A stretch of DNA of 64,000 bases from Desulfosarcina ovata subsp. ovata (GTDB lineage Bacteria; Desulfobacterota; Desulfobacteria; Desulfobacterales; Desulfosarcinaceae): contig NZ_AP021879.1 in the NCBI RefSeq assembly GCF_009689005.1, forward strand, positions 4,828,652 through 4,892,651. Direction: 5' to 3'. The notes beneath the pieces were generated by a model. That model did not search any database. It was not told the origin of the DNA and saw only the letters and a program-made list of their open reading frames with translations. How positions within the stretch are numbered: the first letter of the stretch is position 1; the number at the start of each line of letters is the position of its first letter. Shown here piece by piece: positions 1 through 57,306 of this stretch. Made by a program: the position numbers and the translations under genes.

Positions 1-2617
1 GTGGCGGAACGGCCGACGAGGCGATCCGTTGATGGGCGAACAGCTCCTCCCGTTGGTGCGATCGCCGCCGCTCGGTCTGCCAGGCGGCCAGGGCCCAGCG
101 CAGGCGGGTGCGTGAGGCCTCGGGGTCCAGGCCGTCCAGGGCGCCGCAATGGACCAGGGCCCGCGCCTCGTCTTCGTCGGGTTGCACGCGGGCGAGAAAA
201 CCGGCCATGTCGGGAAACCCGGAGGCCGGCCGACCGGCAACGATCCGCTCCATGGTGGACCGGCTGAGCCCGCCCACGGCCATCAGGCCCACCCGCAGGC
301 GCCGGTTTTGGCCGGTCCAATGGATCCGGCTGCGGTTGACGTCTGGCGGATCGATGGCCAGCCCCATGCGCCGGGCCTCGGAGACATAGGCGAAGGTGCT
401 GTAAAACCCGCCCTGATTGCTGATCACCCCGGCCATGAACGCTGCCGGGAAGTGGGTCTTGAGATAGGCCGCCTGGAAGGAGACCCGGGCGTAGGATGCG
501 CTGTGGGGCTTGCAGAAGGAGTAGCCCGAAAAGCTCATCATCATCTGCCACACCGCCTCGGCCCGGGCCACTGAAACGCCCCGGGCAGCGGCGCCTTTCA
601 TGAAGCGTTCCCGGAAGTCGGCCAACTGGCGCTCACGGTCTTTCCTGGCGATGATCTTGCGCAGGCCGTCGGCCTCGGCATCGGAAAACCCGGCCAGGGC
701 CACGGCCGCCCGGGAGACATCTTCCTGATAGACCATGATGCCGAAGGTGTCGTCCAGCACATCGGCCAGAAGTGGGTGGATCGGGTCCCAGGATGCACCA
801 TGCAGACGTTCCAGGTAGGCCTGGATATACTCGTTGGCCGCCGGCCGGATAATGGAGGAATGGATCACCAGGTGATCGAAGTCGCCGTTGCCGGCTTTCT
901 GGTGAAGCAGGCGCATGGCCGGACTTTCGATGTAGAAACAGCCCATGGTCTGTCCCCGGGCGATGGTCCGGCGGGTGGCCGGATCGTCCTCGGGCGCCCA
1001 GTGCTGCTCGTCAAAGGCGATGCCGTTGGTGCGCATGACCGACAGAGTATCCCGGATCACCCCCAGGCTGCGGTTGCCCAGAAGATCGATCTTCACCAGG
1101 CCGGCGTCCTCGGCCGCGTCCTTGTCCCACTGAATGATCGGTACTCCCTTGGGCGCGGTTTCGATGGGCACGTAGCCGTCAATGGGCGCCGGGGTGATCA
1201 CCACTCCGCCGGGATGCACGGAGAGGTGGCGCGGAATGCCGATGATCCGCTGGGCCAGGGCCATGATCTGCGGCCAGGGCCGGGCAAAATCCAGGTGGCG
1301 GGTCTCGGGACGCTGACGCAGGTTTTCCAGCAGGCTCGCATCCAGTTCGTCCCGGTGCCAGAACCAGGGCAGCCTCCGGCTGATCCGGCCGATCTCGGCC
1401 GCAGGCATGCCGAATACCTTGGCCGTTTCCCGAAGGGCCATGCGCGGCTGAAAAAGAATGTGGCTGGCCACCATGGCGCTTCGACCGGCAAACCGATCCA
1501 GCACGCCGGCGATAACCGCGTCGCGTTCATCCCAGGCAAAGTCCACGTCGATGTCCGGCGGATCGCTCCGCCCGGGATTGAGAAATCGGCCGAAGTAAAG
1601 GTTGTGTTTGACCGGGCAGACATTGGTGATGCCCAGGCAGTAGGCGACCAGCGAGGCGGCGGCCGACCCCCGCCCGCAGGTGCGCGGGCTCTGGGAAACG
1701 ATTTCCTCGACCACCAGGAAATAGGCCGAGAATCCCATGCGGGCGATCGTGGCCAGTTCGTGCTCCAGGCGCTGGGCCACGGCTTTGCCCAGCTCCTGTC
1801 CGTACCGCCGGCGGGCGCCGGCAAAAGCGGCCCGGCGCAGGCAATCGTCAGCGCTGCGACCGTTTTCGTCCTTCCAGGGAGGCATGACCAGCCCGAAGTC
1901 AGGGCCGCTGAAGGTGATCGTCCCGGCCAGCCGGAGGGCATTCTCAATGGCTTCCGGACAAACGGCAAAACGGTGGCGGTAGACATCCGGCGCGGCCAGC
2001 CAGGCGTCGGCCGGAGCAATCGCCGACGGTTCCAGGCGCGAGAGGGTCGTGTTGCCGGCAATGGCCCGCAGCAGGCGGTGCACCGCCAGATCTTGCGGGT
2101 CAAGAAAGAAGCTGCCCGGGGTGGCCACCAGGGGCAGGCCCAGACGGCGGCCCGCCTGCACCAGGGGATGGAACGGCGATGGCGGGCGCCGGGGCAGGGC
2201 GGCGGCCACCCGTACCCCGGACCGGTGCCAGTCCGCCAACAGGTCGGCATGGCCGGTGAGCACCAGCAGTCCCCCGGCCGAAGCGGGCAATGCCGTGGCC
2301 AGATCAAATGCCGGGTCGCGGTGACGTCGGGTGATCAGGCGGCACAGGTTGGCGTAGCCGTCACCATTTCTGACCAGGCAGACGGCCCGCCGGGTGCTGC
2401 ACGGATCGGTGACTTCCGCCCCCACGATGGGGGTAAGCCCCTCTTCCCGGCAGGCATGCAGAAACGGCCACAGGCCGCAGAGGTTGTCCGTGTCGGTCAG
2501 GGCCAGCCGCTCGTAGCCCAGTCGCCGGGCCGCCCGGCAGATGGCCGTCGGTGAGTCGGTGCCCCACATCAGGGAGTAATGGGAGCGAAGCGTAAGGGGA
2601 ATGAAAGGCTGGTTCAT
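1..2617 (-). CDS. dnaE2: Error-prone DNA polymerase III alpha subunit, DnaE2/ImuC type (C-terminus beyond window)
   Basis: Replicative-type (family C) DNA polymerase used for translesion synthesis in the SOS response. The reading frame is open from an ATG at 2617 to the left edge, about 872 codons; DnaE2 proteins are usually 1,000-1,100 residues, so the C-terminal part is missing. The N-terminus is a PHP domain (SHYSLMWGTDSP, then LALTDTDNLCGLW); the PHP metal ligands look poorly conserved, as is common in DnaE2. The polymerase active-site motif PDIDVDFAWDERD lies near 1,525-1,565 and carries catalytic aspartates. It is the last visible gene of the lexA operon, 16 bp after the imuB-like gene. 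DnaE2 rather than housekeeping DnaE is inferred from this context. Confidence 0.9.
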   Translation of the reverse strand, partial: MNQPFIPLTLRSHYSLMWGTDSPTAICRAARRLGYERLALTDTDNLCGLWPFLHACREEGLTPIVGAEVTDPCSTRRAVCLVRNGDGYANLCRLITRRHRDPAFDLATALPASAGGLLVLTGHADLLADWHRSGVRVAAALPRRPPSPFHPLVQAGRRLGLPLVATPGSFFLDPQDLAVHRLLRAIAGNTTLSRLEPSAIAPADAWLAAPDVYRHRFAVCPEAIENALRLAGTITFSGPDFGLVMPPWKDENGRSADDCLRRAAFAGARRRYGQELGKAVAQRLEHELATIARMGFSAYFLVVEEIVSQSPRTCGRGSAAASLVAYCLGITNVCPVKHNLYFGRFLNPGRSDPPDIDVDFAWDERDAVIAGVLDRFAGRSAMVASHILFQPRMALRETAKVFGMPAAEIGRISRRLPWFWHRDELDASLLENLRQRPETRHLDFARPWPQIMALAQRIIGIPRHLSVHPGGVVITPAPIDGYVPIETAPKGVPIIQWDKDAAEDAGLVKIDLLGNRSLGVIRDTLSVMRTNGIAFDEQHWAPEDDPATRRTIARGQTMGCFYIESPAMRLLHQKAGNGDFDHLVIHSSIIRPAANEYIQAYLERLHGASWDPIHPLLADVLDDTFGIMVYQEDVSRAAVALAGFSDAEADGLRKIIARKDRERQLADFRERFMKGAAARGVSVARAEAVWQMMMSFSGYSFCKPHSASYARVSFQAAYLKTHFPAAFMAGVISNQGGFYSTFAYVSEARRMGLAIDPPDVNRSRIHWTGQNRRLRVGLMAVGGLSRSTMERIVAGRPASGFPDMAGFLARVQPDEDEARALVHCGALDGLDPEASRTRLRWALAAWQTERRRSHQREELFAHQRIASSAVPP

Positions 2618-5472: not shown

Positions 5473-8160
5473 ATGTCAAGCCACTGCCAACTTTTGTGTC
5501 ACGGCCGTCTATCGATAAAACGGCTCGTTCTTTTATCCATTTTATTATTTTCAGGAACGATATCGGCAGGCACCGGCGATCGGATGGTAAAAGTCGGGGT
5601 ATATGAAAACGCACCCAAAATTTTCACCGCCGCCGATGGTCAACCGGCGGGGATCTTCATCGATATCATCGCGTCCATTGCGAAGGACGAAGGCTGGCAT
5701 CTGCAATATGTCCACGGTACCTGGAGCGAGGGCCTGGAGCGTCTGGGAAAAGGGGAAATCGATCTTATGCCCGACGTGGCCTACTCGTCGGAAAGAGAAA
5801 AACTGTTTCGGTTTCACAAAAGGCCCGTCCTCTCCTCCTGGTTTCAGGTTTATGCCCGCAGGGGCAGCGGAATCAAATCGATATTGGATCTTAGGGGCAA
5901 ACGCGTTGCCGTGCTGGATCGTTCGGTTCAACAGGATACATTTACACAGCTTGCCGCCAGCTTCGAACTGGAGACGCGCCTCGTCTCTCTGCCGGACTAC
6001 CAGACCATCTTCGAGCGGGTTGCAGACAATCAGGTCGATGCGGCGATCACCAACCGCTTTTTCGGACTGATGCATGCGAAAAAGTTCGACCTTGAGGATA
6101 CAGCGGTGATTTTTCACCCCAGCAACTTGTTTTTCGCGGCACCGCACAAAGCCCCCGGTCAATTGCTGGATACGATTGACGCCCAGCTGTTGAATCTGAA
6201 AAAAGATCCGCAATCAGTCTACTATCGCTCGCTGAAACGATGGGTTTCCGAGGAAGTCCGGTTTCAATGGCCCATATGGCTCCAGGCATTGGGCATGGTT
6301 GTCTGTGTGGTGCTGCTGACGAGCCTGCTGGGAAGCGTTGTCCTCAAGCATCAGGTCAATACGCGCACCCGGGAGCTGAACCAAATGAACCGGGTACTGC
6401 GGACCCTCAGCGAGTGCAATCAGGCATTGGTGCGCTCCACTGACGAAGCCGGATTGCTTGAGGCCATCTGTCGCATCATTGTCGAAATCGGCGGCTACCG
6501 GTTTGCATGGATCGGTTTCACCGGTCCGGAGACCGATGACAATCTCCGTCCCGTGTCCCAGGTTCGCGCCGGGGGTGGCACCCCCGTTACCGCAAAGGCG
6601 GACAATGGCCCGGCCGCCCCCCCCATCCATCCCTTAATCCAAAAAACCCTCCGAAGCGGCCAACCCTGTTCCGCCCGGCATATTTTGACGGATAAGACAT
6701 TCGAATCCTGGCGGGCCGATGCGCTCAAGGAAGGCTATGCCTCGGTACTGGCACTCCCCTTGCTGGCCGATGGAGAAAAACTGGGTGTCATGTGCATCTA
6801 TTCGGCGGATTCCGACGCGTTCGGTGCGGAGGCGGTCGTCCAGCTTACGGAGCTTGCCAATGACCTCTCTTTTGGCATCCACAGCCACCGAATGCGAGTT
6901 GCCTACGCCCAGGCCGAAGCGCAGCGACGGGAGGCCCAGCAGCGATTCGAGGCGACACTGCGTGCCAGTGAACTGAAATACCGCGAACTGGTGATGCTGG
7001 CCAACAGCATCATCCTGCGCTGGTCGCGCGATGGGCGGATCACTTTCCTGAATCAATTCGGCCGGCGCTTTTTTGGATATACGGAAACGGAAATCCTCGG
7101 CCGGCACATCGTCGGAACGATCGTTCCGGAAAGTGAACGCAGCGGACGGGATCTGCGGCAACTGATGGAGGAGATCAGCACGGATCCCCATGCCTTTGAA
7201 CGGAATATCAATGAGAACATGCGTCGCAATGGCGAGCGCGTCTGGATCGACTGGACAAACAAAGTCGTTCTCGATGAACAGGGACAGGTCAAGGAGATCC
7301 TCAGTATCGGTTCCGATATCACTGCCCGCAAGGCGGCGGAGGAACAGATTCACCGTTTGAATATTGAGTTGCGGGAACATGCGCAGGTCCTGGAAAAACG
7401 CGTGGCCGAGCGCACGGCGGAACTGGTGGTCGCCAAGGAGCGCGCCGAGTCTGCCGATCGGCTCAAATCCGCCTTTCTGGCCACCATGTCCCATGAATTG
7501 CGCACGCCGCTGAATTCGATTATCGGCTTTACCGGTATCCTGCTCCAGGAGTTCGCCGGCCCGTTGAATGAGGAGCAGAAAAAACAATTGAGCATGGTGC
7601 AAATCAGTTCCCGCCATCTTCTGGCGCTGATTAACGATGTGCTGGATATTTCCAAAATCGAAGCCGGCCAACTGGAGCTTTCTTACTCACCCTTTGAATT
7701 GCGGCCGTCCATTGAGAAAATCGTCAGGATCGTTGCGCCACTGGCCGAAAAAAAGGGACTTGATATCAAGATAGACATATCCGAGAATGTCGATTTGGTG
7801 ACCGCGGACCAGCGGCGACTGGAACAGGTGATCCTCAATTTGCTCAACAATGCTCTGAAATTCACCGAAAAGGGGCATGTCCACATTTATTGCCGGACCG
7901 ACAACAAGCAGTACCGGTTATCCATTTCGGATACCGGGATCGGGATGCAACCCGAAGCGCTGTCAGGCCTTTTCCAACCATTTCACCAGGTCGATACCGG
8001 ACTGTCACGCAAACACGAGGGAACGGGGCTGGGGCTTTCCATTTGCAAAAAACTGATGGATCTGATGGGGGGGACCATCGATGTGAAAAGCCAGTGGGGC
8101 AAGGGCAGCACGTTCACCATGCGCTTTCCGCAACAGGGGCCGGCGGGAGAATTGTCATGA
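5473..8160 (+). CDS. Membrane sensor histidine kinase: SBP_bac_3 sensor, GAF, PAS, HisKA, HATPase
   Basis: An 895-aa transmembrane sensor kinase. The ATG at 5473 is chosen because it follows AAGGAA and opens with a signal/TM segment (RLVLLSILLFSGTISAG). Then come a periplasmic solute-binding domain of the SBP_bac_3 family (about residues 35-255, with GIFIDIIASIAKDEGW and GKRVAVLDRS), a TM helix (WLQALGMVVCVVLLTSLLGSVV), a GAF domain (SARHILTD, LALPLLADGEKLGVMCIY), a PAS domain (IILRWSRDGRITFLNQFGRRFFGYTE), a coiled coil, HisKA with phosphoacceptor His in ATMSHELRTPLNSI, and a HATPase domain with NLLNNALKFTE and GTGLGLSI. The binding domain suggests sensing of a small ligand such as an amino acid. 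It overlaps the next gene by ATGA, and the operon diverges from lexA. Confidence 0.93.
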   Translation: MSSHCQLLCHGRLSIKRLVLLSILLFSGTISAGTGDRMVKVGVYENAPKIFTAADGQPAGIFIDIIASIAKDEGWHLQYVHGTWSEGLERLGKGEIDLMPDVAYSSEREKLFRFHKRPVLSSWFQVYARRGSGIKSILDLRGKRVAVLDRSVQQDTFTQLAASFELETRLVSLPDYQTIFERVADNQVDAAITNRFFGLMHAKKFDLEDTAVIFHPSNLFFAAPHKAPGQLLDTIDAQLLNLKKDPQSVYYRSLKRWVSEEVRFQWPIWLQALGMVVCVVLLTSLLGSVVLKHQVNTRTRELNQMNRVLRTLSECNQALVRSTDEAGLLEAICRIIVEIGGYRFAWIGFTGPETDDNLRPVSQVRAGGGTPVTAKADNGPAAPPIHPLIQKTLRSGQPCSARHILTDKTFESWRADALKEGYASVLALPLLADGEKLGVMCIYSADSDAFGAEAVVQLTELANDLSFGIHSHRMRVAYAQAEAQRREAQQRFEATLRASELKYRELVMLANSIILRWSRDGRITFLNQFGRRFFGYTETEILGRHIVGTIVPESERSGRDLRQLMEEISTDPHAFERNINENMRRNGERVWIDWTNKVVLDEQGQVKEILSIGSDITARKAAEEQIHRLNIELREHAQVLEKRVAERTAELVVAKERAESADRLKSAFLATMSHELRTPLNSIIGFTGILLQEFAGPLNEEQKKQLSMVQISSRHLLALINDVLDISKIEAGQLELSYSPFELRPSIEKIVRIVAPLAEKKGLDIKIDISENVDLVTADQRRLEQVILNLLNNALKFTEKGHVHIYCRTDNKQYRLSISDTGIGMQPEALSGLFQPFHQVDTGLSRKHEGTGLGLSICKKLMDLMGGTIDVKSQWGKGSTFTMRFPQQGPAGELS

Positions 8161-19053: not shown

Positions 19054-19067
19054 CAGCTCTGACGCAT
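19054..19067. repeat. Left terminal inverted repeat of element 1
   Basis: CAGCTCTGACGCAT; partner of 21821-21834 with one mismatch. Confidence 0.85.
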
Positions 19068-19174
19068 GAATAAAAAGAATCAGGGGTTGGTCACGATTAG
19101 GGCCCCACTTTTCATCACCCGGCTAACGTCTTCACACTTTTATGACCAAGATTTGCTCCTCAGACAATTGTCAT

Positions 19175-19194
19175 GACATAATCTCAATTATGTC
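19175..19194. terminator. Hairpin downstream of the element 1 transposase
   Basis: Perfect 8-bp arms GACATAAT / ATTATGTC around a CTCA loop, inside the 207-bp non-coding 3' part of the element. No long U-tract follows; it may be a weak terminator or shield the genes from outside transcription. Confidence 0.35.
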
Positions 19195-19260
19195 TGACCG
19201 TGGACTCCCATCTCTTCCAGGCTTGAGAGGCTGTTTCGCTTTGTTTTGGTACGGCTACTG

Positions 19261-20787
19261 CTACACCAACCGAAGCTGAAAAGGGGCGGCCAGACGAATT
19301 TCCAGCCATTCATAATCCAACCAGGGGTTGGCTATGGTCTCGCGAATAAAGTGAATAAGGCCTCGCACGCCGGTATCTTTGACGACCTTGGCCAGCCGTT
19401 CCGAATAGCGAGCCAAAACGTTGAACATATGGCCCAGACGCATTAAATAGTGATATCCCTTCATGACATTCCAGTTATACGAAAAGCAGTGCTCATAGCG
19501 ATATCCATGATGTTTTTCAACCAGGATACCGGTTTCGATGCCCCAGCGCGCGCGTGCGCCCAGATTGCACCGTTCGTGAAGATTAAACCGGTTCAACGGT
19601 TTGCTGGACAGCCACACGTGTCGGCTGCTTTTGTCCTCCAATTGCCCGGTTTGCGGGTTAACCTGTTGCCAGCGCTCTTGGCATTCGACGACGTGCAGGA
19701 TTTGGCTTTTTTTATCGTTCGGACCAAACCGATAGTCGATACTGTTTACCCATTTGAACACCTGTTTTCTGTTGCCCCATCCCTGGCGGAAACGATTTTT
19801 TATCTCAAGTGCCGCAAGCGCTTCAAATTCACTCATCACGCTGGGAAGGGATTTGTCTTTCAGGACGATCATGAACTGCCATTTATTTTTGCGGCAAACC
19901 TCTACCACGGGACCCTTGGCGTAAAGCCCATCGATTAACACCATGATTTTCAGCGCCGGAAAGGCCGACTTCAGGCGTTGGGCCAATCGGTAAAAGGCTT
20001 TAAGCTCGCAGTCCTGTTTATCATTGGCGGTGTCGCCTTCGGTGTAGCTTAACATTTCACTCATCAACGGAATAGTCATGCCATCGCGAAACGCCAGATT
20101 GGCCTCTAAAATATAGACATGGTATTGAAGGTGCTCCCCATCCGCTTGCGTAACGGTGCGCTGCAAACACTCCTCGGCCCAAATCCAGTCACGCTTAAAT
20201 TTGCCGGTGCCATCGATCGCGATCGGATAGCACTCGTCAATCAAATAGCGCCGAAATTTCTTTTTCCGGATCAATTGCCGGATCAACTCAAGATGCAACT
20301 GTTCGATTTGATTGACGTCGATCACCGCCAGTAACCGTTTGAGCGTGTCATGATGGGGCAAACTTTCAAGCTCTGGGAAGAAAAACTGCAGATTCTGCCA
20401 AAACAGCGGCCGGGACATCTCCCGGTTGGCCTCGCGACTAGAGCTCATCTGAAAAACAAACATCAGTATCCCATAGATCATCAGGGTCGACAGATTGTGC
20501 TTGATCTTTTTAGGATTTCTCGGGTCCTCGATTTTGGACAGTTGCTTAAGCAGCACAGGCATCTTGGCCCGAAAGATCCCTATTTTCTCGGCAACCGCCT
20601 CATTGCGGGCAGTGTACTCCTGCTCAATGCTTTCGTATTTACACTTGCCGTTTGAAATCGTGGCATGTGATGGCGCCTTAAAGCCCTTGGCCTTTTCATC
20701 CTGACGCAATTTTTTCTGTGCATGTTTGCGCTGTTTGATTTGGGCTTTGATCTGCTCACGACTGGGTCTGCGGCTGGTTTTTTTCAT
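19261..20787 (-). CDS. DDE transposase of element 1 (IS4-like, family uncertain)
   Basis: A 508-aa transposase. The basic N-terminus (KKTSRRPSREQIKAQIKQRKHAQKK) precedes an RNase-H-like core. Likely catalytic residues are Asp192 in AIDGTGKF, Asp286 in LIDGLYAKG and Glu418 in RWGIETG, with GYRYEHCFSYNWNVMK downstream resembling the YREK signature of IS4-type transposases. The frame is intact and the element has matching ends and target duplications, so it could be active. It is preceded at 3 bp by the DUF4338 gene and is probably translationally coupled to it. Confidence 0.85.
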   Translation of the reverse strand: MKKTSRRPSREQIKAQIKQRKHAQKKLRQDEKAKGFKAPSHATISNGKCKYESIEQEYTARNEAVAEKIGIFRAKMPVLLKQLSKIEDPRNPKKIKHNLSTLMIYGILMFVFQMSSSREANREMSRPLFWQNLQFFFPELESLPHHDTLKRLLAVIDVNQIEQLHLELIRQLIRKKKFRRYLIDECYPIAIDGTGKFKRDWIWAEECLQRTVTQADGEHLQYHVYILEANLAFRDGMTIPLMSEMLSYTEGDTANDKQDCELKAFYRLAQRLKSAFPALKIMVLIDGLYAKGPVVEVCRKNKWQFMIVLKDKSLPSVMSEFEALAALEIKNRFRQGWGNRKQVFKWVNSIDYRFGPNDKKSQILHVVECQERWQQVNPQTGQLEDKSSRHVWLSSKPLNRFNLHERCNLGARARWGIETGILVEKHHGYRYEHCFSYNWNVMKGYHYLMRLGHMFNVLARYSERLAKVVKDTGVRGLIHFIRETIANPWLDYEWLEIRLAAPFQLRLV

Positions 20788-20790
20788 CCG

Positions 20791-21714
20791 TCAGCCCTCC
20801 CCTGAACATAACACTTGCCGAAAATTATCCGCCAGCGGATAAACAAAGATCTTTTTCGGACTGGTGGCGTAGCTTTGACCCTGTCGAATAAGCCCCATTC
20901 CGCGGGTCATGCCAAGATACCTAAAATTGGCCGCCCGGTAGCACGTCCCATCGAAATAGTGCGGATCGACAAAGGTTTCCAGCAAAACCGGCCGATAGCC
21001 CCAGCGCTCCTGCCAGTGCCGCCCCAACTCCCTGATCGCCTTGCCCAATGCGCAGCTTGCCAAGTACCTGACCTTTACCCACGGAAAAATCAAATACCGC
21101 CCATTGTTGACAACAAATCCCAGGTTCCGCAGTCGCTCGTTGGTGCTCCAGCCGATCCATTGATCTCTCTTGATTAGCGCTTTGGCCGCTCCTGAAAACA
21201 GCATACACCCCAATAGCGTGCCTGCGCCTTCGACAAAATAGCGCAAATAACATCCAAATGGCTTCTTGTCCCCCAAGTAGTGGTAACGGCTCAGGTATTC
21301 ATTAAAAAGCGCCTTATCTGCTTTGCCTTGTACGACCCTGAGCCGGATCGGCCCGATATCCGAAAGCTTGCCCACGACTGGCTCTTGAGGCTGGATCCGA
21401 TGGGATGCTATCGGCTGCTTGCCGCTTTTGCGGCCGCTATCGCGTTTAGCGGGCAATCGTATGCGCCCTTGCGCTTCCAAACGCTTGAGCAACTTCAGGC
21501 AGGCGTCCACTTTATTGCCGCCGGAAGCGGTGTGCCAGCCCAAATGCTCACATACCGTTTGGGCCAACTCCCACTGACTCAACCGCCAAAATGTCTCAAC
21601 GGTTTCGCGAATTTGCGCAAGCTCCTCACTCTCAATCTGCCGTCCACACTGGACTATCAAAGCGACCTCCTTTTCAAGTGTAGCGTCACGACTATGATGC
21701 GTGCTTACAAACAT
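20791..21714 (-). CDS. DUF4338 (DruA-like) protein carried by element 1
   Basis: A 307-aa protein. The N-terminal part (about residues 20-90) looks like a helical DNA-binding region; the DUF4338 core spans about 125-300. Hallmarks: RYHYLGDKKPFG, RDQWIGWSTNERLRNLGFVVNNGRYLIFPWVKV, LLETFVDPHYFDGTCYRAANFRYLG. The family gives its name to DruA of the Druantia phage-defence system, but no druB-druE genes are nearby. It sits upstream of the transposase inside one pair of terminal repeats, so an accessory role in transposition is more likely here. A second, diverged member occurs at 52327-53208 beside an unrelated transposase. Confidence 0.85.
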   Translation of the reverse strand: MFVSTHHSRDATLEKEVALIVQCGRQIESEELAQIRETVETFWRLSQWELAQTVCEHLGWHTASGGNKVDACLKLLKRLEAQGRIRLPAKRDSGRKSGKQPIASHRIQPQEPVVGKLSDIGPIRLRVVQGKADKALFNEYLSRYHYLGDKKPFGCYLRYFVEGAGTLLGCMLFSGAAKALIKRDQWIGWSTNERLRNLGFVVNNGRYLIFPWVKVRYLASCALGKAIRELGRHWQERWGYRPVLLETFVDPHYFDGTCYRAANFRYLGMTRGMGLIRQGQSYATSPKKIFVYPLADNFRQVLCSGEG

Positions 21715-21820
21715 CCTATGCTACCTCTACCAAAAGCCCGATCGCTTGTCTATAGCTATTTTGAGACAAACTTTTTTTGATGTCTGTCTATCTCGCTGGT
21801 ATCAGTGGGTTTAAATAGTT

Positions 21821-21834
21821 ATGCGTCAGTGCTG
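21821..21834. repeat. Right terminal inverted repeat of element 1
   Basis: ATGCGTCAGTGCTG, the reverse complement of CAGCACTGACGCAT. Confidence 0.85.
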
Positions 21835-50720: not shown

Positions 50721-50867
50721 GCGACCTTAGCATTACCTATGGGTGGCGCAGGGGCAATTTTCGGACGCGAATTCGACTCCCGCCGCCTTTAAGAGACAAC
50801 AATAGCCCAATGCTTAAGAAACTAAAAATCGATGACTCTATTTTAATCCAGGAGGGTGCAATCCCAT

Positions 50868-52340
50868 TTAGGGGCAAGCTTCAAATGTTCCTCGATTCAG
50901 TTGTAGCAAGTGTTCCAGCATATTATCCCAACGCCCGCAAAGTAATGTGCTCCTGAGAAAAAGCATGACCTCAGCGGTCTCACGCTTCCAAAAAATACCC
51001 GGCGCTTTCAACCGAAGATTGATCACGCGACGTATCGCGCTTTCAACACAACCGCTGCCGGTCGGCAGATTTAATAACCGAAAGGCCGCATACTGCATGC
51101 GGCGGAGATTTTTCACAAAGTAATTGTTGAACTTGTTCAATGCTTTCTTTAGCTTCGACGGATACGTGATGTACTGACGAATCTGATTTCGGATTTCCAT
51201 CAAATTTCCTTGCCATAACAGGTCCTTCCAATTCTTGAGAATCGCCGTTCGCTCTTTGGCTTCAAGGGTTTTGGGAAGATGATCCGCGACAATATGCAAA
51301 TTCTGTTTGGCATGGGTATAGTCGATCACTTGGAAACACGTCTTGGCTTCAAGCTTTTCTGCCAGTGAGGAAAATCGTTTCCAATATCTGCGATCGCCAT
51401 CCGCGCAGAAAATTACTCCGTCGGCCTGGTCAACGCCGATTTGACGAAGATAATCTTCCAATAATTCAAACGCACCGTTGATGTCGGCCATCGTGGCATC
51501 GTAAAGCGGGGCAATTTCCTTGATCGGATTTGCCTGGGCGTCGAGCCATTGAATAACGATTTGTGTCGGCTCCCGCCAGTCGGAATAATATCCTCTCCGT
51601 TTTTGATGGGAAGCCAACCGCCCCTTTTTGGTCCGGCGTTCACGAAGGCGGCCACCATCAATGCACACGAACAAAACGCGGCCGGTTACATGGTCATTTT
51701 CCGATAATGTTATCCGATGCCGATTCTCCATGGAGCGATTGCCCATGTGCATACACAACCGCCGGATCGTTTTAATATCCATGTCGATGCCAACAGAAGA
51801 CAAGGTCCGATTGGCAATCTCAAATGACGGACACAATAAGCTTGCCTGAACAGACGCCGATGCCAAAACAGCGCTGCAACGATCCATAAAACCCAGATAG
51901 GCCAACCCCAGGTGAATACCGCTTTTCGGTTTCCGTTTCTTCCTTTTACGACCACGGCGAGATTTCGGAAGCGCTTTGGCAAAATAAGGGGATTCAATCG
52001 GTAGCGATCGGCCGGATAAAAGCCGAATGCTGGTGGGTTTGAATCCCTTGAAGCGAAATCCGAGTTTTGCTGCCAGCTTTTTTACGGCTTTAAAAAAACA
52101 TGGATCGGAAAACAGATTTTCAATGGAAGATACAATCAAGTCCTCAATTGTGGAGAAGAGGGCTGTGCGCAGATCGATGATCAGCCGGTTGGCATCGGAA
52201 TGTGTCTGGAAATTGGAAAGGGTTTCATCAATGGTCCGTTGCAGCTTTTGAATATCGACAGTGGTCTCCATGGCTCGCCTCGCAGATAGCAGGTTCTCGA
52301 ATGCCTGCCGTGCAAGTAGCGAAGCTTCAGCCTGCGGCAC
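50868..52340 (-). CDS. Transposase of element 2 (ISKra4/ISLre2-like)
   Basis: A 490-aa transposase unrelated to that of element 1. Features: basic linker PKSRRGRKRKKRKPKSG, probable catalytic Asp in VLFVCIDGGRLRERR, second in GVIFCADGDRRYWKRF, DYTHAKQNLHIVADHLPKTL, and the C-terminal GSGCVESAIRRVINLRLKAPGIFWKRETAEVMLFLRS in outline, which carries the expected final Glu (VES). This layout resembles the ISKra4 and ISLre2 groups. It overlaps the DUF4338 stop by 14 bp, which suggests coupled translation. The frame is intact. Confidence 0.82.
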   Translation of the reverse strand: MPQAEASLLARQAFENLLSARRAMETTVDIQKLQRTIDETLSNFQTHSDANRLIIDLRTALFSTIEDLIVSSIENLFSDPCFFKAVKKLAAKLGFRFKGFKPTSIRLLSGRSLPIESPYFAKALPKSRRGRKRKKRKPKSGIHLGLAYLGFMDRCSAVLASASVQASLLCPSFEIANRTLSSVGIDMDIKTIRRLCMHMGNRSMENRHRITLSENDHVTGRVLFVCIDGGRLRERRTKKGRLASHQKRRGYYSDWREPTQIVIQWLDAQANPIKEIAPLYDATMADINGAFELLEDYLRQIGVDQADGVIFCADGDRRYWKRFSSLAEKLEAKTCFQVIDYTHAKQNLHIVADHLPKTLEAKERTAILKNWKDLLWQGNLMEIRNQIRQYITYPSKLKKALNKFNNYFVKNLRRMQYAAFRLLNLPTGSGCVESAIRRVINLRLKAPGIFWKRETAEVMLFLRSTLLCGRWDNMLEHLLQLNRGTFEACP

Positions 52341-53208
52341 ATAAGCGCTTTTTGAAATCGGCTGTCAACGGATAAACGTACAGGTCTTTGACCGGCACCT
52401 TCAACTTTCGATAGCGATCTTGACGGCTGCGGCCTTTGGTTTGCCCCAATTTTAGCCAGTTGGCAGCCTGATAACAGGTCCCTTCAAAGCGGGAACGATC
52501 GACGAAGGTTTCGACCAGGCACAAATCGTGACCATAGCGCGTGGACCAATCGGACCGCAACCGCCTGAGACAAGCGCCCAGAATGAAACTGGCCAAGTTG
52601 GGAATGCGAACCCAGGGTAGAATCAAAAACCGGGTGTTGTTGGTCAACAGCTTCAGATTCCCTTGGCGTGTAGCCACGTTCCATCCGATGTAACGGTCTC
52701 GTGGTGTTGTTTTCCAGGCTGCCGATCCAAAAAGCAGGCAGGCCAGGGGCCTTTCGTGGCGATCATAGACCATATACTTCATATGCTCGCCAACGTGACC
52801 CCGGCACCCCAAATAATGGTAGCGATCCATTAGACAATGAAAAAGGTGATCGTTGTCTGAACGGCCACTGACCATGATGATTTCAACAGGACGAAGATCG
52901 TCCAGCACTCCCTCGATGGGGTCGCGACGATGAGGCATGTCAGGTATCTGCCGGGAATGATTTCCCGGTCGCAACGGTGGCGGCAGCACGATGAACTGGC
53001 GTTGTTCTAGCTTACGCAACATTGAACGGCAGGCAATATCTTTGGGCTGACCTTTATCGGTGCGCCAATTCCACATTCGGCACAGTTCGATGGATAACCG
53101 ACTGCGGTGCCAATCCGGATTGTCGGCCATCAGCCGACGAATCAGTTCAATATCTTCGGAAAATAATTTGCGCCCCTGAATGGTCATGCTCTCACTCATG
53201 GACGACAC
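52327..53208 (-). CDS. DUF4338 (DruA-like) protein of element 2
   Basis: A 293-aa member of DUF4338, clearly diverged from the copy in element 1. Shared hallmarks: DRYHYLG, RDRYIGWNVATRQGNLKLLTNNTRFLILPWVRI in outline, LVETFVDRSRFEGTCYQAANWLKLG, and the final segment KDLYVYPL. The N-terminal 90 residues differ from the other copy (RKLFSEDIELIRRLMADNPDWHRSRLSIELC in outline), perhaps a recognition domain fitted to its own element. No other Druantia genes are present. Confidence 0.85.
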   Translation of the reverse strand: MSSMSESMTIQGRKLFSEDIELIRRLMADNPDWHRSRLSIELCRMWNWRTDKGQPKDIACRSMLRKLEQRQFIVLPPPLRPGNHSRQIPDMPHRRDPIEGVLDDLRPVEIIMVSGRSDNDHLFHCLMDRYHYLGCRGHVGEHMKYMVYDRHERPLACLLFGSAAWKTTPRDRYIGWNVATRQGNLKLLTNNTRFLILPWVRIPNLASFILGACLRRLRSDWSTRYGHDLCLVETFVDRSRFEGTCYQAANWLKLGQTKGRSRQDRYRKLKVPVKDLYVYPLTADFKKRLCAAG

Positions 53209-53325
53209 CTTATCGAAGATAGCGTTTTGAGTCCAGCTTTATTTTTCAAAGAGCGAGAAAATCGGTACCATTACGCCTGTTAGTAAATTTGCCCCAATTT
53301 GGGTTTACACCCATCCAGGAGGTTA

Positions 53326-53599: not shown

Positions 53600-55186
53600 G
53601 TAAGCGTTCACGGGGTATATTGGGCGCTCAATCCGGCGCACTTTTTTCGCTCCGCTAACCTCTCGTAATTTCAATATTTTTATACAAAATCAATAACTTA
53701 TTGAAATAATTAAAAATATCTAGACTTTCCATTTCTAGTATGCTATCGTGCTTTTCATGAAGCCCGATAGACCCATTTCAGATGCCGATTGGCAAGCTAC
53801 TGCTGAACCGGTACGCCAGTACATCGTTTCTTTGGAAGATGAGCTGCGGGCGATTAAAACTCAAAACGACAAGCTGGAGAAAAACAACGAGAAGCTTGAA
53901 AAGCAAAAACGCCAAAACTCGACCAACTCCAGCAAACCGCCCTCATCCGATCCGCCCTATAACAAACCCAAACGCGAAAAGCCCAAAGGCGAACGCAAGC
54001 CGGGCGGACAAAAAGGACACCCGGGGCATGGGCAAATGCTGCTAACGCCCAACAATACTCAAAATGTGATGCCCGAGTGCTGCGGTTGCGGTCTCCATTC
54101 ATCGGATTGGGATAATCTGCGACCCTTTCATACTCACCAACATATCGAATTGCCTGAAATCGAGATGGACATCACCCATTTTGTTCTGCACCAAGGTCAA
54201 TGCCCTGGGTGCGGCAAGATTGTCAAAGCACAGGTTCCGGAGGCGTTTAGCACCGGCTACGGCCCGCGGTTTTGTGCGTTTATCGCCGAACTGAGTGGTA
54301 TCAAGGCCATGAGTCGGAGAAATGTGCAGCAACTGGTCCACTCCGTGTTTGATATCAAAATCGCCACCGGCACGATCCAAAAGGTTATCGACCGCGCTTC
54401 CGAGGCCATTGCCTCCACCTATGAGCGTATCGGCCAGGTGGCCCGCAGCAGTGAGTGCAACTTCATCGATGAAACCAGTTGGTTTAAAAAGCACAATCTG
54501 CAATGGCTCTGGGTAATGGTCAATACGATGGTGGCCTTTTTCCGCATCGATCCGAAAAGATCCAAACAGGCCTTTCTCGAACTGATCGCCGACTGGAAAG
54601 GCATCTTGATCAGCGATGGTTATCGCCTTTATTGCAAATGGGTCCATGGCCGGCAAACCTGCCTGGCCCATTTGATCCGAAAGGCCAAGGCGTTAATCGA
54701 GAGTAGAAAACTCAACGAAAGGCGAGGCGGCAAGTTAATCTTGGCACATTTGAATACCCTGATCGAATTTTCAAAAAACAAACCGCCACCTTTAAAATGG
54801 GAGCGTTTTTATAACTCCTTGTTGCTCATCCTCAGCCTTTTTGAAGACGACACCGACGGTGCCGGTCGCCTGGCCAGGCAAATAATACGAGAAATTGACG
54901 CATTGTGGACCTTTCTCGAACATGATGGCGTCGAACCCACCAACAACCGTGCCGAACGCTCTCTGCGCTTTGGCGTGCTATGGCGCAAATGTAGTCTGGG
55001 AACGCAAAGCGACAAAGGCAACCGCTGGGTCGAACGAATCTTGTCTGTAAAAGAAACCTGCCGACTGAGAGATAAAGCCACATTTCCGTTTATAGTCGAA
55101 TGCCTGGAATGTTACTTTGCAGGCATCTCTGTTGATGTGAGTTGGATCTAAGCCTCTCTTCAGCTAATAGCCCCGTGACCGTTTAC
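53600..55186 (+). mobile_element. IS66-family element, single-gene (ISBst12-like) type
   Basis: Complete 1,587-bp element. Left end GTAAGCGTTCACGGGGTATA (53600-53619); right end on the other strand GTAAACGGTCACGGGGCTAT (55186-55167). Both start with the GTAA typical of IS66. The 8-bp duplication GATTATTT also fits IS66. Only the tnpC-type transposase is present; the tnpA and tnpB helper genes are absent, as in the ISBst12 subgroup. Confidence 0.93.
53757..55151 (+). CDS. IS66-family transposase (TnpC type)
   Basis: A 464-aa transposase. A leucine-zipper-like coiled coil (SLEDELRAIKTQNDKLEKNNEKLEKQ in outline), the SSKPPSSDPPYNKPKR segment and the zinc-finger-like CGCGLHS with CPGCGK are characteristic of IS66 TnpC. 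The DDE core has Asp in FIDETSWFKK, Asp in LISDGYRLYCKW and Glu in NNRAERSLR. The ATG at 53757 is used; a GTG three codons earlier is possible. Intact and flanked by proper ends, so possibly active. Confidence 0.94.
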   Translation: MKPDRPISDADWQATAEPVRQYIVSLEDELRAIKTQNDKLEKNNEKLEKQKRQNSTNSSKPPSSDPPYNKPKREKPKGERKPGGQKGHPGHGQMLLTPNNTQNVMPECCGCGLHSSDWDNLRPFHTHQHIELPEIEMDITHFVLHQGQCPGCGKIVKAQVPEAFSTGYGPRFCAFIAELSGIKAMSRRNVQQLVHSVFDIKIATGTIQKVIDRASEAIASTYERIGQVARSSECNFIDETSWFKKHNLQWLWVMVNTMVAFFRIDPKRSKQAFLELIADWKGILISDGYRLYCKWVHGRQTCLAHLIRKAKALIESRKLNERRGGKLILAHLNTLIEFSKNKPPPLKWERFYNSLLLILSLFEDDTDGAGRLARQIIREIDALWTFLEHDGVEPTNNRAERSLRFGVLWRKCSLGTQSDKGNRWVERILSVKETCRLRDKATFPFIVECLECYFAGISVDVSWI

Positions 55187-56058: not shown

Positions 56059-57306
56059 ATGGGTGTAAAAAATAAAGTGTTGGCCGCTAACCGGCGTAAG
56101 GATTTACTAAAATCCGCGCAAGAAATTTTTTCACAAAAAGGATTAGCAGATGCCAACATTTCCGATATTGCAAGAAAAGCAAACATAGCAGATTCAATTA
56201 TTTATCATTATTTCATTAATAAGGAAGACCTGCTTTTTTATGCATTGGCGGATAAACTTGATGAGGTTGAACGTGAATTAAAACTTCATTTATCTGGTAT
56301 TAGAGATCCGGTTTCTAAGCTCGGAAAAATGATATGGCATAACCTGTATATTAACGATTTGAGCCCACATGAAACTCGAGTTCTAAAAGATCTTCTTTTT
56401 GAATGCCGGTCTAACCAAAATTTTTATTCTCATGAAGGCTATCAGGCTCTTAGACGATACACGAAAATCATGTCTGATATATTGCAGCAGGGAGTCAATA
56501 AAAAAATTTTCAGGTCTGATGTCGACCTAATATTAGTTAGAAACATGATATTTGGGCTGCTTGATGAAGAGTCCCTTTCTCGTTTCTCTTCACAAGAGAT
56601 AGACAGTACCTTGCCTGATTTTGACGGTATTATGGATTTGGTGTTGTCAATTATATCGTGTGAAGAAGCAGCGGCAAAGGAGGTTGTTAATGATGACAAT
56701 AAAGAAGCTCGAATTCTTAAGGCAGCTGTTCAGGTGTTTTCTGAAAAAGGGTACAACGCAGCAACAATGGCTGAAATTGCAAGTACAGCCAATGTTGCGG
56801 AAGGAACGATTTATATCTATTATCCAAGTAAAAGTGACTTGCTTTTTTCGATACCGAAAAGACGATTTAAATGGCTATGCGAAAGCCGGGATGAGGTTTT
56901 TAACATCGATTGCCCCATAAGAAAGCTTCGCCGATTTACCCGTTTATTATTTACAACATTTATGGGCAACAGGGATTTCTTGCGTGTTTTTCTACTGGAT
57001 ATTAAATTAAATAAAAAATTTTATGTATCCTCAGCATATAAAGATTACATCGATTATGTATCCATCTTAGAAGCAATATTGGAAGAGGGAAAACAACGAG
57101 GCATATTTAAAGAAAAAATTAATAATCGATTATTCCGGAATCTTTTTTTAGGAACATTTGCGCATTTGGCAACTCGATGGGTAATGTTAGACAATGCAAA
57201 ACCCATCGACATGATGAAAAGCATTGAAGACTTGGTATCGTTGTTATGCTGGTCCGTTGTGATAGATAAAACGGCGCTGCAAGAGATTGAAGAGAGCGTC
57301 GGATAA
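56059..57306 (+). CDS. Tandem TetR-family regulator (two TetR units in one chain)
   Basis: A 415-aa protein, about twice the normal TetR length. The first helix-turn-helix (about residues 13-60) reads LLKSAQEIFSQKGLADANISDIARKANIADSIIYHYFINKEDLL in outline; the second (about 218-263) reads ILKAAVQVFSEKGYNAATMAEIASTANVAEGTIYIYYPSKSDLL in outline. Each is followed by its own all-helical ligand/dimer domain. The chain could fold as a covalent pseudo-dimer with two different half-site preferences. The gene is far more AT-rich than its neighbours and lies at the edge of the mobile-element island, pointing to transfer. The target is unknown; it converges on the NuoF-like gene. Confidence 0.88.
   Translation: MGVKNKVLAANRRKDLLKSAQEIFSQKGLADANISDIARKANIADSIIYHYFINKEDLLFYALADKLDEVERELKLHLSGIRDPVSKLGKMIWHNLYINDLSPHETRVLKDLLFECRSNQNFYSHEGYQALRRYTKIMSDILQQGVNKKIFRSDVDLILVRNMIFGLLDEESLSRFSSQEIDSTLPDFDGIMDLVLSIISCEEAAAKEVVNDDNKEARILKAAVQVFSEKGYNAATMAEIASTANVAEGTIYIYYPSKSDLLFSIPKRRFKWLCESRDEVFNIDCPIRKLRRFTRLLFTTFMGNRDFLRVFLLDIKLNKKFYVSSAYKDYIDYVSILEAILEEGKQRGIFKEKINNRLFRNLFLGTFAHLATRWVMLDNAKPIDMMKSIEDLVSLLCWSVVIDKTALQEIEESVG

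What the first reader, a model, noticed from the sequence alone, without database searches (positions are those of the whole stretch)
50868..53208. A second DUF4338 gene is coupled to a non-homologous transposase
Element 2 has the same order, DUF4338 first and transposase second with coupled translation, but its transposase has no evident similarity to that of element 1. The two DUF4338 proteins share their core motifs (YHYLG, IGW, NN-R-LI-PWV, ETFVD-F-GTCY-AAN-LG) and differ in the N-terminal 90-120 residues. Inference: DUF4338 is an accessory recruited by different transposases, with an exchangeable N-terminal recognition domain. This would be a two-component transposition system not described by family names alone, and could be the ancestor of the Druantia use of DruA.
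Basis: partly seen in the sequence, partly recalled or inferred. Interest (0 to 1): 0.7.

Follow-up and report, generated by a model that had tools for sequence, protein, structure and literature searches.

The report
Jumping genes sharing a DruA helper
Several unrelated bacterial jumping genes in this genome each carry, or are fused to, the same kind of helper protein, which is built like a viral enzyme that chemically modifies DNA, so the helper may be a portable DNA-modifying part that mobile elements borrow.

Summary
Element 2 is a complete insertion sequence (window 50854-53312, 2459 bp): a DruA/DUF4338 gene and an ISKra4-like transposase between inverted repeats, in eight identical copies, each with its own 8-9 bp target duplication. 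Element 1 pairs DruA with an unrelated transposase; a third element fuses DruA to an IS701 transposase. In the phylum, 40 of 60 fetched DruA loci have a same-strand transposase beside or fused to DruA. Partners over curated cut-offs are IS66, IS701, IS4, IS1634, ISAs1 and ISKra4; others score lower. Partners follow DruA clades but were exchanged several times. So "DruA is an accessory of different transposases" is supported. "Exchangeable N-terminal domain" is not: that domain is shared, and missing in IS701 and ISAs1 fusions. Descent of Druantia DruA cannot be told. The DruA core is a GNAT fold whose best solved match is phage Mu Mom, a DNA-modifying enzyme; most residues aligned with Mom's are nearly invariant and the domain is under purifying selection. 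Best reading: a portable Mom-like helper that acts on DNA at the transposition complex. Catalysis and target are untested.

The parts
50854..53312 (-). Element 2: complete insertion sequence, 2459 bp
   Evidence: Limits set by aligning 8 identical copies with their flanks
50846..50853 (.). Target duplication, low-coordinate side (8 bp, ATCCAGGA)
   Evidence: Same 8 bp on both sides of the window copy
53313..53320 (.). Target duplication, high-coordinate side (8 bp, ATCCAGGA)
   Evidence: Same 8 bp on both sides of the window copy
50854..50881 (.). Terminal inverted repeat beyond the transposase gene, starting GGGTGCAATCCC
   Evidence: 21 of 28 positions match the other end, counted from the sequences printed
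53285..53312 (.). Terminal inverted repeat beyond druA, starting GGGTGTAAACCC when read on the minus strand
   Evidence: 8 exact copies and 2 copies with 1-2 mismatches in the genome
52327..53208 (-). druA (DUF4338), 293 residues; N-terminal domain about residues 8-75, GNAT core about residues 101-291
   Evidence: PF14236 139.6 bits; model mean pLDDT 92.6; fold matches
50868..52340 (-). ISKra4-like DDE transposase, 490 residues, GTG start overlapping the druA stop by 14 nt
   Evidence: NF033572 107.1 bits, below cut-off; D, D and E conserved in 7 aligned relatives
19054..21834 (-). Element 1: complete insertion sequence, 2781 bp, 9-bp target duplication TTTCGGCGT on the minus strand
   Evidence: 6 copies aligned
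20791..21714 (-). druA of element 1
   Evidence: PF14236 116.7 bits
19261..20787 (-). Transposase of element 1, not assigned to a family; starts 3 nt after druA
   Evidence: PF13808 49.2 bits; IS1380 24.1 bits of 180, ISAs1 12.2 of 70

Best explanation
Element 2 is a recently active insertion sequence that carries DruA as an accessory of transposition. DruA is a portable module, a Mom-like GNAT core usually behind a small helical N-terminal domain, that DDE transposons of at least six families have acquired, exchanged and, with four of these families, fused to the N-terminus of the transposase. I infer that DruA works on DNA at the transposition complex: the transposase, or DruA's own N-terminal domain, brings it to the element and the GNAT core modifies bases there, as Mom does on Mu DNA, to protect the element or its intermediates or to license new copies. 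Shown here: the two genes move together; many partners; exchange; fusion; fold; selection. Inferred: physical action with the transposase, base modification, and its effect. Rough odds: accessory shared by many transposases 0.95, Mom-like fold 0.9, acts with the transposase 0.7, modifies bases 0.45.
For: Identical copies with both genes inside the target duplications. Six partner families over NCBIfam cut-offs. 40 of 60 phylum loci with a same-strand or fused transposase. Fusions with IS701, IS4, ISAs1 and IS1634. 12 partner changes on the tree, where 7 would do without exchange, against at least 26 in 200 shuffles; DruA 78% identical with different partners in L056 and L066. Best solved fold match phage Mu Mom, Z 14.4, next row 13.1; Pfam Mom matches 16 of 59 relatives at E<=0.01; residues aligned with Mom nearly invariant in 132 rows. 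dN/dS 0.15-0.21 for the DruA part of four IS701 fusions. DUF4338 was called a GNAT domain fused to DndF in PMC10853773 (passage); Mom modifies adenine N6 (PMC7824862, passage).
Against: No activity is tested. The window protein scores 20.4 bits for Pfam Mom, under its cut-off of 27.1; hhalign with Mu Mom gives 5% probability; Foldseek's 50 shown rows hold other GNATs and not Mom; a shared fold does not show function. Most IS701 and ISKra4 elements outside this genome lack DruA (2 of 22 and 0 of 5 loci have it), so these transposases can do without it. Some DruA genes stand alone (10 of 60 phylum loci without a transposase). A 283-bp element with both ends but no druA has a target duplication, so druA is not needed in cis.
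Confidence: 0.55

Rival explanations
1. DruA is an architectural helper: its N-terminal domain and a non-catalytic GNAT scaffold bind DNA or the transposase and help to build the complex; no base is modified.
For: Fusions to the transposase; a three-helix N-terminal domain; no activity is shown; the window protein is below the Mom cut-off.
Against: Polar core residues aligned with Mom (H, Y, D or E, Y, N) are nearly invariant also in fused and solitary forms; the N-terminal domain is missing in IS701 and ISAs1 fusions while the GNAT core stays.
Confidence: 0.27
2. DruA is anti-restriction or anti-defence cargo, like Mom in phage Mu: it modifies element or replicon DNA so that it survives entry into a new host, and takes no part in transposition.
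For: Mom-like fold; the DruA domain also occurs in defence systems.
Against: Repeated fusion to, and tight overlap with, the transposase suggest a role in transposition itself; no match in 50,697 phage records and only 2 of 72,556 plasmid records with element 2's DruA, where such cargo would be expected.
Confidence: 0.13
3. The pairing is incidental: a Druantia remnant beside a transposon.
For: The family is named after Druantia.
Against: Only druA and the transposase lie between the duplications, in eight identical copies. PADLOC's DruA model covers 73 of 407 positions at 20.3 bits, against 292-379 bits for DruA in L120, L122 and L123.
Confidence: 0.02

Closest known systems
Phage Mu Mom (PDB 8bv8; Pfam PF25680)
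   Same: GNAT fold of the core (Z 14.4, rmsd 3.9, 170 residues aligned) and aligned H-Y, N, D and G..YQA.N..G positions.
   Different: Only 16% identity; below Pfam's Mom cut-off; extra N-terminal domain; sits beside or inside DDE transposases. No modification activity is known for these proteins.
Druantia type I DruA
   Same: Same Pfam family PF14236.
   Different: The PADLOC profile barely matches; only a transposase gene lies with it inside the element.
ISKra4, IS66, IS701, IS4, IS1634 and ISAs1 insertion sequences
   Same: Transposases of these families, with inverted repeats and target duplications where tested.
   Different: They carry DruA as an extra gene or fused domain; DruA-less IS701 and ISKra4 elements are the commoner form in the loci seen elsewhere in the phylum.
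TnpB in IS200/IS605 and IS607 elements (recalled, not tested here)
   Same: One accessory protein carried by unrelated transposases.
   Different: DruA has a GNAT fold, partners DDE transposases and is often fused to them.

Membership tests
Insertion sequence (complete element) | Terminal inverted repeats and a target duplication around the transposase gene, in several copies | tested here: met
   8 of 8 copies with 8-9 bp duplications
ISKra4 family | Transposase over the curated NCBIfam cut-off | tested here: not met
   107.1 bits against 205; called ISKra4-like here. A partner in L124 does pass (363.9 bits)
ISKra4 family | DDE residues conserved | tested here: met
   D, D and E conserved over 7 relatives aligned here
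DruA / DUF4338 (PF14236) | Score over Pfam's gathering cut-off | tested here: met
   139.6 bits against 27
Druantia type I | Full-length match to the PADLOC DruA model | tested here: not met
   73 of 407 positions, 20.3 bits
Druantia type I | druB to druE beside druA | tested here: inconclusive
   Only a transposase gene lies inside the element; genes outside it were not scanned with PADLOC, apart from the neighbouring IS66 transposase
Mom family (PF25680) | Score over Pfam's gathering cut-off | tested here: not met
   20.4 bits against 27.1; 16 of 59 relatives match at E<=0.01
Mom family (PF25680) | Mom-like GNAT fold | tested here: met
   Mom is the first VIA-align row, Z 14.4 against 13.1 for the next
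Mom family (PF25680) | Adenine modification activity | not testable with these tools
   Needs biochemistry

The most novel reading that the evidence does not exclude
DruA is a transposase-independent DNA-base-modifying enzyme that DDE transposons of many families repeatedly capture and fuse in order to mark their own DNA during transposition, and Druantia and DndF-type defence systems use the same module.
Probability: 0.35. Interest if true: 0.87.

Novelty: new variant of a known kind. Interest (0 to 1): 0.64.

Why it matters
Insertion sequences with accessory genes are known, but one Mom-like GNAT protein that serves at least six DDE families, is exchanged between them and is fused to the transposase in four would be an unusual general helper. 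It makes the role of the DruA domain testable in a small two-gene system, instead of inside the large Druantia complex. It also warns that a 'Druantia DruA' name on a gene beside a transposase may mark a transposon and not a defence system.

Tried and rejected
The first guess for the left end of element 2 (near 50741) was wrong; comparison of copies put it at 50854. A plain sequence link to Mom by hhalign failed (5% probability); the fold and Pfam results carry that claim. A profile search of the PDB by sequence found no relative (only an E 0.78 match). The N-terminal domain gave no significant fold match: Foldseek best E 0.67, VIA best Z 5.1, with Lrp-, MarR- and paired-domain entries among the weak rows; 'HTH-like' describes its three helices only. 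That DruA replaces TnpB in IS66 elements was rejected: TnpB-like ORFs were found in 28 of the 140 loci L040-L179. The IS1634 partner of L056 might be a later insertion: no IS66 remnant was detected on that 3.5-kb contig and its ends could not be fixed, so this exchange is likely, not proven. A viral-contig scan with the fusion and a phage search with DruA found nothing. Sampling other phyla with the genome search did not work, so the less biased count is for one phylum; the 80 loci are the best matches to element 2's DruA and so biased. The transposase profiles were built from DruA neighbours themselves, so they cannot find unforeseen families; for example L080's IS701-like transposase was missed and seen only by NCBIfam. 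Two of the 40 phylum loci rest on hits near the 20-bit limit (L174, 23 bits; L177, 21 bits for the fused ORF, 111 for the next). Rows dropped: of 72 non-own rows, 11 low-scoring ones were not fetched. The tree left out DruA hits under 200 bits, five duplicates and further own-genome copies; it is a quick tree with 49 weakly supported forks of 129, so counts of exchanges are approximate. Two of three dN/dS values among L056, L066 and L145 could not be computed.

Papers: DUF4338 occurs in 3 papers of the library; I saw passages of PMC10853773, PMC7251935 and PMC6174562, and no passage shown there links it to transposons. Passages of PMC8565338, PMC12774648, PMC7824862 and PMC8670742 were also seen. 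0 papers hold both whole words DruA and transposon. The 31 papers ('drua' there also matches Druantia, with transposase) were seen as a listing, passages in two only, so a mention among them could be missed. Further listings. Most subscription journals, preprints and ISfinder could not be searched.

Full report
What is there. On the minus strand, druA (52327-53208) is followed by a transposase gene (50868-52340) that overlaps it by 14 nt. DruA matches PF14236 with 139.6 bits; the transposase matches NCBIfam ISKra4 with 107.1 bits, under the curated 205. The genome (7.63 Mb, one contig) holds 19 DruA matches: eight of this type, six of element 1's type, four inside a 720-residue ORF and one solitary.

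Element limits. Aligning copies with their flanks gives sharp limits. Element 2 is 2459 bp (50854-53312) with inverted repeats starting GGGTG. Its eight copies are identical and each has its own duplication, 8 bp in four and 9 bp in four. Element 1 is 2781 bp (19054-21834): six copies, a 9-bp duplication in five of six. The third element is 2313 bp: four copies, a 4-bp duplication in all four. The duplications lie outside druA and the transposase, so the two genes move as one unit. A 283-bp element with both element 2 ends, neither gene, and a 9-bp duplication also lies in the genome, so the ends can be used without either gene in cis.

Different transposases. BLASTP between the two window transposases finds nothing. 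The third element's ORF is DruA (residues 64-226) fused to an IS701 transposase (309-685; 294.8 bits, cut-off 150). In other genomes the partners over their NCBIfam cut-offs are IS66 (320 bits of 180), ISKra4 (364 of 205), IS1634 (264 separate and 291 fused, of 100), IS4 (396 of 160, fused) and ISAs1 (140 of 70, fused). Below cut-offs are an IS1182-like type (69 of 270), an IS701_3-like one in L080 (124 of 170) and element 1's type.

How common. PF14236 is found in 47 of 297 genomes of the phylum, the own genome included. Of 72 rows from other genomes, 61 were fetched as 60 loci. With transposase profiles built here and a 20-bit limit, 16 loci are fused, 20 have the transposase downstream and 4 upstream on the same strand: 40 of 60. 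Six end at a contig edge, 4 have no DruA by my profile and 10 show no transposase. L120-L123, matching nearly the whole Pfam model, are among these last twenty. Outside fused ORFs, transposase ORFs fall from 0.255 per kb within 1.5 kb of DruA to 0.025, 0.020 and 0 per kb in the next three 1.5-kb belts. In the 80 loci closest to element 2's DruA, from many phyla and biased by choice, 67 have a same-strand transposase, 2 one on the other strand, 6 end at a contig edge and 5 show none. Inverted ends with 8-bp duplications around druA and the IS66 transposase were found in 6 of 46 loci that could be scanned, and in none with a displaced control.

DruA is optional. Of 29 IS701 loci from 118 genomes (own included), 6 carry DruA: 4 of 7 in the own genome (one of the other three is a truncated copy of the third element) and 2 of 22 elsewhere, some of these cut by contig ends. 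Of 13 ISKra4 loci, 8 of 8 in the own genome and 0 of 5 elsewhere carry it. Of 612 plasmid records that match the fusion, none covers 80% of it; the 25 listed match the IS701 part.

Exchange of partners. On a quick tree of 132 DruA, 102 rows have a partner label. Twelve changes are needed, against a mean of 28.6 and a minimum of 26 in 200 label shuffles. Eight partner types need at least seven changes even without exchange, so five are extra. The six ISKra4 rows alone need 5 changes and the two IS1634 rows 2; IS701, IS4, ISAs1, IS1182-like and element 1's type need 1 each. In L056 (IS1634) and L066 (IS66) DruA is 78% identical (228 of 291) and the printed DNA stops matching at the end of druA. 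Fused against separate needs 4 changes. Many forks of this tree are weak, so the counts are approximate.

What DruA is. The model of element 2's DruA has mean pLDDT 92.6. Among 999 chains aligned by VIA-align, phage Mu Mom (8bv8) comes first: Z 14.4, rmsd 3.9, 170 residues, 16% identity; the next row is a GNAT at Z 13.1. Foldseek's 50 shown rows are GNATs without Mom. Pfam's Mom model matches 16 of 59 relatives at E<=0.01, best 1.3e-6, but the window protein only with 20.4 bits, below 27.1. Adding Mom to the DruA alignment puts Mom's H-Y, N, D and G..YQA.N..G on DruA H131-Y132, N191, D237 and G243..Y246QA.N250..G255. In the tree rows with a letter there, H131 is present in 131 of 131, Y132 in 127 of 131, N191 in 127 of 132, R193 in 131 of 132, Y246 in 129 of 130 and N250 in 128 of 130; position 237 is D in 86 and E in 44 of 130. 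Over six pairs of four IS701 fusions, dN/dS is 0.15-0.21 for the DruA part, 0.08-0.16 for the transposase and 0.9-1.4 for the first 60 codons, which may not be translated. DUF4338 has been called a GNAT domain fused to DndF (PMC10853773, passage).

The N-terminal domain. Residues about 8-75 form a hairpin and three helices with only weak HTH matches. Elements 1 and 2 share it (24/85 identical, core 73/186). It is found in 95 of 97 adjacent pairs, 4 of 5 IS4 fusions and the IS1634 fusion, but in 0 of 10 IS701 fusion rows (four of them own-genome copies) and 0 of 3 ISAs1 fusions. It is kept or lost, not swapped. Its loss in these fusions fits the idea that the transposase then does the DNA targeting (inference).

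Mechanism. Shown: DruA travels inside the element, is a recurrent partner of DDE transposases, becomes fused to them, keeps its core under selection and has a Mom-like fold. Inferred: it modifies DNA at the element. That would explain the conserved polar residues, the indifference to end sequence and duplication length (4 to 9 bp), the fusions, and reuse in defence systems. A DNA-binding scaffold or an anti-restriction cargo remain possible.

Relation to Druantia. PADLOC's DruA model gives 20.3 bits for the window protein and 292-379 bits in L120, L122 and L123, where neighbours include HerA-like ATPases (L122, L123) and a TmtA-like protein (L123). No direction of descent can be read from an unrooted tree.

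Novelty. I saw no paper that links DUF4338 or DruA to transposons, in the listings and passages named under Tried and rejected. The library lacks most subscription journals and ISfinder could not be consulted, so the elements may be listed there.

Noticed in passing
window 56059-57306 (+): A 415-residue protein with two TetR_N stretches, which looks like a tandem TetR fusion.
   Followed up: no
window 53748-55151 (+): An IS66-type transposase with a DUF6444 domain lies about 435 bp from element 2, on the other strand; the ORF list shows no second DruA beside it.
   Followed up: no
G000:C1:3237176-3242995 (L023, L024): Two copies of element 2 lie in opposite orientation around 902 bp that hold one 246-residue open frame, like a small composite transposon.
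   Followed up: partly
L193 2813-3095 (G000:C1:7260312-7260594): A 283-bp element with both element 2 ends and a 9-bp target duplication, without druA or transposase: a MITE-like derivative.
   Followed up: partly
L171 about 1750-1880 (-), L173 about 7000-7120 (+): In these DruA-ISAs1 fusions the reading goes on in an overlapping second frame, with a run AAAAAAAG in the overlap, which may be a programmed frameshift.
   Followed up: no
L037 4110-5030 (-); also L128-L130 and L132-L135: DruA genes without a detected transposase beside them; solitary, perhaps domesticated or remnants.
   Followed up: partly
L090, L099, L119: IS66-type elements with a TnpB-like ORF just upstream of druA, so DruA is an addition to TnpB there.
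   Followed up: partly
L182 3956-5290 (plasmid NZ_CP020371.1): A protein annotated as ISAs1 family transposase (WP_216644545.1) overlies a DruA match, so such fusions can hide under transposase names.
   Followed up: no
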